64,000 bases of DNA, taken from assembly GCF_017084525.1 (NCBI RefSeq), contig NZ_CP070950.1:372001-436000 (forward strand), read 5' to 3'. Below the pieces are notes generated by a model. That model was not told where the DNA came from. It searched no databases and was given only the letters and a program-made list of their open reading frames with translations. Positions 15,466 to 63,532 of the stretch are shown in pieces. The position numbers and the translations under genes are program-made. The stretch is from Conexibacter sp. SYSU D00693 (GTDB lineage: Bacteria; Actinomycetota; Thermoleophilia; Solirubrobacterales; Solirubrobacteraceae). Numbering within the stretch: position 1 is the first letter of the stretch; every line of letters begins with the position of its first letter.

Positions 15466-16251
15466 GCGCCGTGGCGCGCCTCGGCGTCCTGGGCTGGCCC
15501 GTCGCCCACAGCCGCTCGCCCGCCATGCACACGGCGGCGCTGGCGCAGCTCGGGCTCGGCGGCTGGAGCTACCAGCGCCTGCCCGTCCCGCCCGAGCTCT
15601 TCGACGAGACCGTCCGCGGCCTGCCCGGCGCGGGCTTCGTCGGGGCGAACGTCACGATCCCGCACAAGGAGGCGGCGCTCGCGCTCGCCGACGACGCCAC
15701 GCCCGCGGCCCGGACGATCGGCGCAGCCAACACGCTCAGCTTCTCCCCGGACGGCGCGATCGAGGCCGACAACACCGACGCGCCGGGTCTCCTGGCCGCC
15801 ATCGGCGAGGACGTCGCCGGCATGGACGCCACGGTGCTCGGCGCCGGCGGCAGCGCCCGCGCGGCGGTCTTCGCGCTGCGCGAGGCCGGAGCGCGGGTCG
15901 CGATCTGGAACCGCTCCGCCGCCCGGGCCCGGCAGGTGGCCGAAGAGCTGGGCGCGACCGTCGTGGCCGCGCCGCAAGCCGGAGCGCTGCTCGTCAACTG
16001 CACGTCCGTCGGGCTGCACGATCCGGCGCGGACGTTCAAGGACCTCCCCCTCGATGCCGATGGTCTGGACCGATGGTCGATGGTCGTGGACCTCGTCTAC
16101 CGTCCTTCGGGTACCGCGCTGCTCGACGCCGCCGCGCGGCGCGGGTGCCGGACCGTGGACGGGCTCGAGGTGCTCGTCCGCCAGGGTGCGCTGTCGCTCA
16201 CCCGCTGGACGGGGCGTGAGGCGCCGCTCGCGGCGATGAGGACTGCGGCTC

Positions 16252-18041
<1,790 letters not shown>

Positions 18042-18045
<4 letters not shown>

Positions 18046-47875: not shown

Positions 47876-47989
47876 GTCTCGTTCCCCCCTGGGAAGTCGC
47901 TTGTCGCGCGGGACCTCATGTCCTGCGCGGGTTCTGCATCGGCAGCCGGTGCCAGGACTTGATCGGCGATCCGTCCGCCGTGCCGTCCC

Positions 47990-54673: not shown

Positions 54674-54773
54674 GCCCCCATGGTGCCACCACCGACTGTG
54701 GCTAGTACGAACGTCCAATCGCTTGAGGTCCTGGCACGGCGGGCCGATCTGGTCCTTGCAAGGCCAGGACTGA

Positions 54774-54862
54774 GGTGCCAAGGGCAAACCGCGCCGCGAG
54801 GCCGGGACGCAAAGCCACGGACCTCCCGCGGAGAACGCGCGAGGAAGCCGGGTTGCCACCGA
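54774..54862 (+). ncRNA. Class I cyclic-di-GMP riboswitch (GEMM-I) upstream of pilA
   Basis: The conserved GEMM-I blocks are present in order: AGGGCAAACC (54781-54790), a hairpin capped by the GNRA tetraloop GCGA, GGGACGCAAAGCC (54803-54815), a second hairpin (CCTC...GAGG with CGCG/CGCG inner stem, 54822-54844) and GAAGCCGGGTTGCC (54844-54857). GGTG at 54774-54777 pairs with CACC at 54857-54860 to close P1. This RNA class binds cyclic-di-GMP. The aptamer ends about 60 bases before the pilin start; downstream, GGTCC (54889-54893) can pair with GGACC inside the aptamer or at 54863-54867, a plausible switch near AGGAG (54906-54910). Confidence 0.88.
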
Positions 54863-54920
54863 GGACCCGAGGGACTGGCAGCACACCAGGTCCAAACCAG
54901 ATCCCAGGAGATCACCCACA

Positions 54921-55394
54921 GTGCTGCAGCGCTTCAAGAACGACGAGGGCGGCTTCACGCTCATCGAGCTCCTCGTCGTCATCCTGATCATCGGCATCCT
55001 CGCCGCGATCGCCCTCCCGACGTTCCTCGGCCAGCAGAAGAAGGGCCAGGACTCCGCCGCCAAGTCGGATGCCCGCAACGCGGTCACCCAGATCGAGGCG
55101 TGCTACACGGACAAGCAGGACTACGCCCTGTGCGACGGCGCCAACGAGGCCGCCGGCACCGACGAGCTCCCCGAGCTGAACAGCAAGATCGGCACGGGCG
55201 AGGAGCAGATCGTCATCGCCGGCACCGCCACGGGCTGGTCGGTCGTCGCCAAGTCCAAGGCCAAGACCGGCGCCAACAACCACACGTTCACGATCGCCAA
55301 GAACGCCACGACCGGCGAGATCACCCGCGTCTGCTCGCCGGCCGGCGAGGGCGGCTGCGGCGGCTCGGGCGGCGGCAACAACGGCACCTGGTAG
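54921..55394 (+). CDS. pilA: Major type IV pilin 1
   Basis: 157-aa prepilin: short leader ending DEGG, then FTLIELLVVILIIGILAAIALP with cleavage between Gly11 and Phe12 and Glu at +5, the classic type IVa signature. The head (about 45-157) has two cysteine pairs (CYTDKQDYALC; CSPAGEGGC) and ends in a Gly/Asn-rich tail. GTG 54921 has AGGAG 10 bases upstream. It stands directly behind the cyclic-di-GMP riboswitch, so its expression is probably tied to that second messenger. A terminator-like hairpin separates it from the second pilin. Confidence 0.93.
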   Translation: MLQRFKNDEGGFTLIELLVVILIIGILAAIALPTFLGQQKKGQDSAAKSDARNAVTQIEACYTDKQDYALCDGANEAAGTDELPELNSKIGTGEEQIVIAGTATGWSVVAKSKAKTGANNHTFTIAKNATTGEITRVCSPAGEGGCGGSGGGNNGTW

Positions 55395-55476: not shown

Positions 55477-55941
55477 ATGCACAAGCGCGAAGAGGGCTTC
55501 ACGCTCATCGAGCTGCTCGTCGTGATCCTGGTGATCGGGATCCTTGCGGCGATCGCCCTGCCGATGTTCCTCGGCCAGCAGCAGAAGGGCCAGGACGCCG
55601 ACGCCAAGGCGGCGGCGCGCAACCTGGTCACGCAGATCGAGAACTGCGTGACGGAGACCCAGGACTACCGCGACTGCCAGGACGCCGGCCTGCAGGCCCA
55701 GGGCGGGCTCGCCGCCCCGCTGGGCACCGACCCGGGCGAGGTGACCGTCGACGCGGCGACCCAGACGACCTGGCACCTCGTGGCCACGTCCGAGGCCAAG
55801 ACCGGCGGCGTCCAACACCGGTTCTTCCTCGAGCGGACCTCGACGGCCGACGTCACCCGCACGTGCACGCCGGCCGGCAAGGGCGGCTGCGGCGCACCGA
55901 CGGCCGACCCCGGCGACGCCGCCGACGTCGGCGGCTGGTAG
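55477..55941 (+). CDS. Major type IV pilin 2
   Basis: 154-aa prepilin paralogue of the preceding one: leader MHKREEG, then FTLIELLVVILVIGILAAIALP (cleavage Gly7-Phe8, Glu12 at +5). The heads share the spacing of both cysteine pairs (CVTETQDYRDC; CTPAGKGGC), so they probably arose by tandem duplication, but the middle (ATQTTWHLVATSEAK) has diverged. GGGGAGAGAG precedes ATG 55477. There is no riboswitch of its own; a terminator follows. Whether the two form mixed or alternative pili cannot be told. Confidence 0.92.
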   Translation: MHKREEGFTLIELLVVILVIGILAAIALPMFLGQQQKGQDADAKAAARNLVTQIENCVTETQDYRDCQDAGLQAQGGLAAPLGTDPGEVTVDAATQTTWHLVATSEAKTGGVQHRFFLERTSTADVTRTCTPAGKGGCGAPTADPGDAADVGGW

Positions 55942-56154: not shown

Positions 56155-57450
56155 ATGTCCCGCTGGCGGAACTTGCGCTGCGAGGCCGGCTACGCCCTCC
56201 TCGAGGCCGTGGTCGGTGCTGCCGTCCTGGCCGTGATCGCGCTGGGGACGCTGCCGCTGCTCGACGCGCTGGCCAGCCAGAGCGGCCGCACCCGTGATCG
56301 GGGGGTCGAGACGCAGCTCGCGCAGTCCGACCTCGAGCGGATGCGGGCGATGGACGTGCGCGACCTCGCCCACCACCACCGCACCACGCCGGTGAAGGTC
56401 GGGCGCCTGAACTACCTCGTCACCTCGGACGCTGAGTGGATGCGCGACGCGGGCGGCGTCGTCTCCTGCACCGCGGACCCGCAGGCGGTCGACTACCTGC
56501 GGATCCGCTCGACGGTCCGGCCCGCGGGGACGAACAAGCACCACGACCCGACGGTCATGGAGTCCCTCGTCTCGCCGCCCGTCGGCGGCTTCGGGGTCAA
56601 CAGCGGGACGCTCGCGGTCTCGGTGCTCGACGGCGACAGCGCGCCGGTCGCCGGACTGGACATCAGCGCCGGCAACCAGACGGTCCCGACGACGGACGCG
56701 GGCTGTGCGGTGCTCGGGGGCCTGAAGTCCGGCAGCCAGCAGGTCACGTTCTCGCGGCCCGGCTACGTCCTTCCGACCGGCGAGGAGCAGGTGGCCCTGA
56801 CGGCGAACGTCCTCGCCGGCGCCACGAGCACCGTGAGCTACCAGTACGACCGCGCCGGCTCCGCGCCCGTCGCCTTCGACACCGTGCCGAGCAGCGGCCT
56901 GCCGGCGGTCGCCGCGGCGTCGCGCACGGTGAGCCTCTCCCACACGACGCTCACCGGCGATCGCGCGTTCACCGCCGCGGCGCCCGCGGCGCAGCTCACC
57001 GGCACCAGTCTCTTCCCGTTCCGCTCCTCCTACGCCGCCTACGGCGGCGCCTGCCCGGGCAACGACCCGACGACCTACGACGCCGACTACTTCGACAGCC
57101 GCCCCGGCCTGACGACGGTCCCGCCTGGCGGGACGGCGCCCGCGGTGACCGTCCGCATGCCCAGCGTCTGGGTGCGCGTCCTGCGCGGGGGCTCGCCCTA
57201 CCCCGGAGCGCGGCTCACCTTCCGCACGCGTCTCGCCGCCTGCACCGAGACCTTCGACGTGCAGGCCAGCGGCGCGGGCGGCGACGCGAAGGTCGCGCTG
57301 CCCTTCGGTCCGTACACCGTCTGCGCCTCGGACGCCGCCGGCCGGCGCGCGACGGCGACCATCTCCAACGTGCAGCCCGACGGCATGGCCGCGCCGGTCA
57401 GCCTGACGATCCCGACGTCGGGCACTGCGCAGGGGGCGTGCCCCGCATGA
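56155..57450 (+). CDS. PilV-like minor pilin with two carboxypeptidase-regulatory-like domains (operon B, first gene)
   Basis: 431-aa protein. Prepilin-like start RCEAG then YALLEAVVGAAVLAVIALGTL (Glu at +5), then the PilV-type helix QLAQSDLERMRAMDVRDL. From about 150 the head carries beta-sandwich modules like CarboxypepD_reg/SdrD B domains: LAVSVLDGDSAPVAGLDIS...GCAVLGGLKSGSQQVTFSRPGYV (about 153-205) and VWVRVLRGGSPYPGARLTF (about 335-353). This is 2-3 times the size of normal minor pilins, so it likely forms an exposed tip or side adhesin. Its stop overlaps the next ATG by 4 bp. Confidence 0.8.
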   Translation: MSRWRNLRCEAGYALLEAVVGAAVLAVIALGTLPLLDALASQSGRTRDRGVETQLAQSDLERMRAMDVRDLAHHHRTTPVKVGRLNYLVTSDAEWMRDAGGVVSCTADPQAVDYLRIRSTVRPAGTNKHHDPTVMESLVSPPVGGFGVNSGTLAVSVLDGDSAPVAGLDISAGNQTVPTTDAGCAVLGGLKSGSQQVTFSRPGYVLPTGEEQVALTANVLAGATSTVSYQYDRAGSAPVAFDTVPSSGLPAVAAASRTVSLSHTTLTGDRAFTAAAPAAQLTGTSLFPFRSSYAAYGGACPGNDPTTYDADYFDSRPGLTTVPPGGTAPAVTVRMPSVWVRVLRGGSPYPGARLTFRTRLAACTETFDVQASGAGGDAKVALPFGPYTVCASDAAGRRATATISNVQPDGMAAPVSLTIPTSGTAQGACPA

Positions 57451-63491: not shown

Positions 63492-63532
63492 CGGTGGTCA
63501 AGGGCCACGGCGCCGCTGCCGATGCCCAGAGC

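What the first reader, a model, noticed from the sequence alone, without database searches (positions are those of the whole stretch)
54774..54862. Class I cyclic-di-GMP riboswitch controlling the major pilin gene in an actinobacterium
All conserved GEMM-I sequence blocks and both hairpins, including a GNRA loop, are present in order between the divergent promoter region and pilA. Cyclic-di-GMP riboswitches upstream of pilins are documented in Clostridioides difficile (class II) and GEMM elements near pilus genes in some Deltaproteobacteria; I do not know of one described for type IV pili in Thermoleophilia. The 3' flank offers mutually exclusive GGTCC/GGACC pairings and an 8-bp pairing (54746-54753 with 54896-54903) that encloses the aptamer and ends next to the Shine-Dalgarno, giving a possible expression platform.
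Basis: partly seen in the sequence, partly recalled or inferred. Interest (0 to 1): 0.85.

Follow-up and report, generated by a model that had tools for sequence, protein, structure and literature searches.

The report
Cyclic-di-GMP riboswitch before major pilin gene
The RNA leader of the main pilus gene in this actinobacterium carries a sensor for the signal molecule cyclic-di-GMP, and it seems to be transcribed from a promoter type whose sigma factor is itself controlled by cyclic-di-GMP, so one gene may be gated twice by the same signal.

Summary
Confirmed: 54773-54860 is a class I cyclic-di-GMP (GEMM-I) aptamer (48.1 bits, cut-off 35, E 2.5e-6), directly before pilA (GTG 54921). The same pairing occurs in about 27 sampled genomes of the order and sporadically beyond it, so it is a conserved element. 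Comparison instead suggests an outer helix P0 (GCCAG 54763-54767 / CTGGC 54875-54879; swap test p=1e-4) and a hairpin around the Shine-Dalgarno (p<5e-5); both tests are post hoc and ignore relatedness. WhiG-like promoters precede most of these aptamers, and the genome encodes WhiG and a single-motif RsiG, the c-di-GMP-dependent anti-sigma known from Rubrobacter. Best model: pilA is gated twice by c-di-GMP, in transcription by RsiG-WhiG and in translation by the riboswitch, probably OFF when ligand is high; the direction is inferred only and no binding was tested. Five same-genus genomes lack the aptamer at pilA and carry a different conserved leader. Known aptamer class in a new context; no earlier report was found in the open-access library searched.

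The parts
54724..54750 (+). WhiG/sigma28-type promoter: weak -35-like TGAG (54724-54727), 15-nt spacer, -10 GCCGATCT (54743-54750); predicted start about 54757
   Evidence: matrix trained on 23 other genomes ranks it 12th of about 128,000 window positions; 8 of 12 consensus letters here, stronger matches before most other pilA aptamers. Start site inferred, not mapped
54763..54767 (+). P0 5' strand GCCAG, near the 5' end of the predicted transcript
   Evidence: own-versus-swapped duplex test over 27 leaders p=1e-4; compensatory forms in three leaders
54773..54860 (+). class I c-di-GMP aptamer (GEMM-I, RF01051)
   Evidence: cmscan 48.1 bits, cut-off 35; G at the ligand-discriminating position (54783), as in 33 of 33 pilA-linked copies
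54871..54879 (+). GGGACTGGC: holds the P0 3' strand CTGGC (54875-54879); can pair instead with CCAGATCCC 54897-54905
   Evidence: P0 test; alternative pairing -13.4 kcal/mol in the window but not significant across leaders, p=0.24; CCAG downstream enriched, 11 of 21 against 2.6 expected
54897..54905 (+). CCAGATCCC: candidate partner of GGGACTGG; overlaps the 5' arm of the SD hairpin
   Evidence: function inferred
54900..54913 (+). Shine-Dalgarno hairpin GATC-ccagga-GATC with AGGAG at 54906-54910
   Evidence: arms covary across 27 leaders, 0 of 20,000 permutations; in the window only 4 bp, -3.0 kcal/mol
54921..55394 (+). pilA, major-pilin-like protein, GTG start
   Evidence: PF07963 36.6 bits; TIGR02532 over cut-off
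55477..55941 (+). second pilin gene downstream
   Evidence: PF07963 35.2 bits
56088..56114 (+). second WhiG-like promoter candidate, intergenic, before the PilV-like gene at 56155
   Evidence: matrix rank 5 in window; sequence
63498..63525 (+). WhiG-like promoter candidate before pilD (prepilin peptidase, ATG 63533), followed beyond the window by pilM and a PilO-like gene
   Evidence: matrix rank 1 in window; PF06750/PF01478, PF11104, PF04612

Best explanation
A class I c-di-GMP riboswitch in the 5' leader of pilA. Shown by computation: the aptamer, its conservation before pilA, and, with the limits stated, an outer helix P0 that closes the aptamer with a short 3' segment, and a hairpin around the Shine-Dalgarno. 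Inferred: transcription starts from a WhiG-type promoter just upstream; RsiG holds WhiG when c-di-GMP is high; in the RNA, ligand binding stabilises P1 and P0, which keeps CTGG from a downstream CCAG, lets the SD hairpin form and lowers translation; without ligand CTGG pairs with CCAG and opens the SD hairpin. High c-di-GMP would then shut pilA off at both levels. Confidence by step: aptamer 0.95; regulation of pilA 0.85; WhiG-type promoter 0.8; OFF direction 0.6. The single figure below is for riboswitch control of pilA plus the WhiG-type promoter, not for the direction.
For: RF01051 hit; same linkage in relatives; P0 own versus swapped p=1e-4 with compensatory forms GTCAG/CTGAC, GCCAA/TTGGC, GAGCTGGGGCT/GGCTCCGGCTC; SD-hairpin arms p<5e-5; CCAG enrichment 11 of 21 against 2.6; WhiG-like promoters with at least 10 of 12 letters in 57% of pilA aptamers, 8% of other GEMMs, 0.4% of shuffles; WhiG equivalog 370.6 bits over 343; single-motif RsiG 74.6 bits over 27, matching R. 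radiotolerans RsiG crystal chains; 16 GGDEF domains; RsiG-WhiG linked to type IV pili in Rubrobacter (PMC8325347). Relatives L157 and L165 share an anti-aptamer GTGGTTTGCC with a terminator-like hairpin, which also reads as OFF.
Against: Free folding does not separate bound and unbound states; SD accessibility 0.65 in both; leader fold z-score -0.41. The competing pairing is not significant as a class (p=0.24, 0.21). The covariation tests were done on the sequences in which the helices were first noticed, among six pairings tried, and permutation ignores relatedness. The window's -35 is weak and its SD hairpin only 4 bp. Five same-genus genomes lack the aptamer at pilA. RsiG has H for Q in the published motif and is near universal in the genomes tested (39 of 40), so its presence does not discriminate. 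The terminator scan did not call the L157/L165 hairpins (their loops exceed its limit). No binding or expression data.
Confidence: 0.72

Rival explanations
1. ON switch: ligand binding raises pilA expression, as recalled for the class II riboswitch before C. difficile pilA1. With RsiG-WhiG repressing at high c-di-GMP this would give a band-pass, pilA expressed only at intermediate c-di-GMP.
For: Folding does not fix the direction; ON and OFF cyclic-dinucleotide riboswitches both exist (PMC9262584).
Against: CCAG enrichment downstream of CTGGC favours OFF; the layout of L157 and L165 reads as OFF.
Confidence: 0.28
2. Decaying element: in this species the aptamer is a remnant on its way to being lost, as in genus relatives, with little output.
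For: Five same-genus genomes lack it at pilA; score near the low end of the pilA group; weak -35 and SD hairpin.
Against: Core blocks, GNRA loop, G at the discriminating position and P0 are intact.
Confidence: 0.12
3. Same aptamer acting by Rho-dependent or other transcription termination rather than translation.
For: Relatives in another family have terminator-like hairpins with the same aptamer and gene.
Against: No terminator-like site in the window leader; the SD hairpin points to translation.
Confidence: 0.15
4. The ligand is cyclic AMP-GMP, as in Geobacter GEMM-Ib.
For: The same aptamer family binds cGAMP in Geobacter (PMC12285248, PMC8835794).
Against: G, not A, at the discriminating position in all 33 pilA-linked copies (role of the position from own knowledge).
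Confidence: 0.05

Closest known systems
c-di-GMP-I (GEMM-I) riboswitch, Rfam RF01051
   Same: full-length aptamer match over the curated score
   Different: outer helix P0 and SD hairpin as probable platform, before pilA, under a WhiG-type promoter
(RsiG)2-(c-di-GMP)2-WhiG switch of Rubrobacter type IV pili (PMC8325347)
   Same: single-motif RsiG and WhiG present; WhiG-type boxes before pil genes
   Different: that paper mentions no riboswitch; control of pilA here untested; motif Q replaced by H
C. difficile class II c-di-GMP riboswitch before pilA1
   Same: riboswitch control of a major type IV pilin by the same signal
   Different: unrelated aptamer class, Firmicutes (own knowledge; Bordeleau 2015 cited in the paper read)
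Geobacter pilM GEMM riboswitch (PMC9262584)
   Same: GEMM aptamer before type IV pilus genes
   Different: senses cGAMP, transcriptional ON switch, pilM rather than pilA

Membership tests
c-di-GMP-I riboswitch RF01051 | covariance-model score at or over the gathering score | tested here: met
   48.1 against 35 bits, full length
c-di-GMP-I riboswitch RF01051 | core blocks, two stems, GNRA loop | tested here: met
   sequence and alignment
c-di-GMP-I riboswitch RF01051 | G at the ligand-discriminating position | tested here: met
   54783 is G; 33 of 33 pilA-linked copies; role of the position from own knowledge
c-di-GMP-I riboswitch RF01051 | binds c-di-GMP and changes expression | not testable with these tools
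   needs in-line probing and reporters
c-di-GMP-I-GGC RF03167 | score at or over its gathering score | tested here: not met
   44.4 against 59 bits
RsiG-WhiG c-di-GMP switch | WhiG sigma factor in the genome | tested here: met
   NF004935 370.6 over 343 bits
RsiG-WhiG c-di-GMP switch | RsiG with E-X3-S-X2-R-X3-Q-X3-D motif | tested here: inconclusive
   PF22802 74.6 over 27 bits; motif has H for Q
RsiG-WhiG c-di-GMP switch | WhiG-type promoter before the target, TAAA / GCCGATAA | tested here: inconclusive
   clear in relatives; in the window -10 has 6 of 8 and -35 2 of 4 letters

The most novel reading that the evidence does not exclude
One gene, two receptors for one messenger in series: pilA is transcribed by a sigma factor free only when c-di-GMP is low (RsiG-WhiG), and its mRNA is then gated by a GEMM-I riboswitch for the same ligand; the arrangement is shared across an order of deep-branching actinobacteria and replaced in most of one genus by an undescribed conserved leader.
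Probability: 0.5. Interest if true: 0.7.

Novelty: new member of a known kind. Interest (0 to 1): 0.55.

Why it matters
It places the major pilin of a deep actinobacterial class under riboswitch control and, if the promoter reading is right, under two c-di-GMP receptors in series. That makes it a test case for why a cell senses one messenger twice on one gene (double lock or band-pass), and it extends the Rubrobacter link between RsiG-WhiG and type IV pili to Thermoleophilia by promoter evidence.

Tried and rejected
Two-state folding with the aptamer replaced by a hairpin: no difference in SD accessibility. Six pairings were put to the swap test; besides P0 and the SD arms, a P1 extension gave p=0.015, and P0-3' with pre-SD (p=0.24), post-aptamer with pre-SD (p=0.21) and aptamer with 3' leader (p=0.87) failed. 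Exact TAAA/GCCGATA consensus in the whole genome: no match, so the window site is a weaker variant. The matrix hit at 16056 before pilB lies inside the upstream coding frame and may be chance. First alignment of same-genus leaders used wrong minus-strand coordinates and was redone. Terminator scan of L157/L165 negative.

Full report
What is there. Rfam RF01051 matches window 54773-54860 on the + strand over its full length with 48.1 bits (gathering score 35, E 2.5e-6), the only family hit at gathering threshold in 64 kb. The variant family c-di-GMP-I-GGC scores below its own cut-off (44.4 against 59). The gene that follows, GTG 54921-55394, has a prepilin N-terminal methylation motif. A second pilin gene, further pilin-like genes and pilD/pilM follow. 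The genome carries one more RF01051 hit, before a secreted protein.

Conservation. Of 61 genomes taken as relatives, 34 have RF01051 hits; about 20 of these have one shortly before a pilin gene. With a class-level sample (118 of 299 genomes with hits) the pilA linkage reaches about 27 genomes of the order, two of them with the pilin cut by a contig end, three of a second family (L157, L164, L165) and one pseudopilin-like case (L155). Two more pilin cases appeared in a 20-locus sample of the phylum. A named relative with the pairing is Solirubrobacteraceae bacterium Prado029, L082. In five genomes of the window's own genus the aptamer is absent at pilA.

Promoter. I noticed GCCGATA boxes before the aptamers by eye and then scored them against the published flagellar/WhiG consensus TAAA / GCCGATAA (PMC8325347). 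At least 10 of 12 letters match in 57% of pilA aptamers (12 of 21), 8% of other GEMMs and 0.4% of shuffles. A matrix built from 23 other genomes, the window's excluded, ranks the window site (GCCGATCT 54743-54750, weak -35) 12th of about 128,000 positions; its top five include intergenic sites before pilD, before the PilV-like gene and before a secreted-protein gene. In PMC8325347 RsiG with c-di-GMP holds WhiG, and mapped WhiG-type promoters lie in the pilus cluster of Rubrobacter radiotolerans. The window's genome encodes WhiG, an 84-aa single-motif RsiG whose motif reads EVDISYRRRILHGKID, H for Q, and 16 GGDEF domains. RsiG is near universal in the genomes tested, so its presence alone does not discriminate.

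Platform. Pairing each leader's 5' tail with its own 3' segment beats swapped partners (-15.6 against -13.7 kcal/mol, p=1e-4). The core is GCCAG/CTGGC, with compensatory forms in L039, L031 and L137. The arms of a hairpin around the Shine-Dalgarno also covary (0 of 20,000 permutations). Limits: both helices were seen first in these same leaders, six pairings were tried, and swapping ignores relatedness, so the p values are optimistic; the compensatory forms are the stronger evidence. How ligand binding is passed on is inferred. CTGG can pair with a downstream CCAG that overlaps the SD hairpin; CCAG is enriched there (11 of 21 against 2.6 expected), but the pairing is not significant as a class (p=0.24), and folding does not separate two states. 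L157 and L165 differ: no WhiG box near the aptamer, terminator-like hairpins and an anti-aptamer GTGGTTTGCC, which reads as an OFF switch; a consensus terminator scan did not call them.

What it is and what is new. By score and anatomy it is a GEMM-I aptamer; binding and regulation are untested. GEMM-I itself is common in the phylum (128 of 296 genomes). Searches of the open-access library found no paper on a riboswitch in these genera or at actinobacterial pilins; subscription papers were not covered. The new point is the context: a riboswitch and a c-di-GMP-dependent sigma/anti-sigma pair that apparently act on the same gene.

Noticed in passing
L088, L090, L091, L092, L094 (pilA leaders of five same-genus genomes): A different conserved leader stands in place of the aptamer: GGTG..CACC hairpin, CGGGGCTTGCTGC-AAGACCT-GACCCCGG, outer GTGCGG/CCGCAC. 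No Rfam match; covariance model R1 finds it only in this genus, once per genome, at pilA.
   Followed up: partly
L084 upstream of pilin at 1809; L085 upstream of pilin at 2512: A WhiG-like -10 box and a P0-like helix remain but the aptamer is missing.
   Followed up: no
L027, L156, L020: GEMM-I aptamers not linked to pilA with A or C at the ligand-discriminating position; possibly another ligand.
   Followed up: no
L046 1901 and 2783: Tandem duplication of aptamer plus pilA with identical leaders in G024.
   Followed up: no
window 16252-18045: PilB-like ATPase with an MshEN domain (PF05157, 55.2 bits), a possible third c-di-GMP input; binding residues not checked.
   Followed up: partly
window 47936-47962 (-): Strong intergenic WhiG-like site before a 417-aa secreted protein with no Pfam hit.
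   Followed up: partly
L001, G000:C1:1053192-1053278: Second GEMM-I of the genome, with a Shine-Dalgarno directly after the aptamer, before a secreted protein.
   Followed up: no
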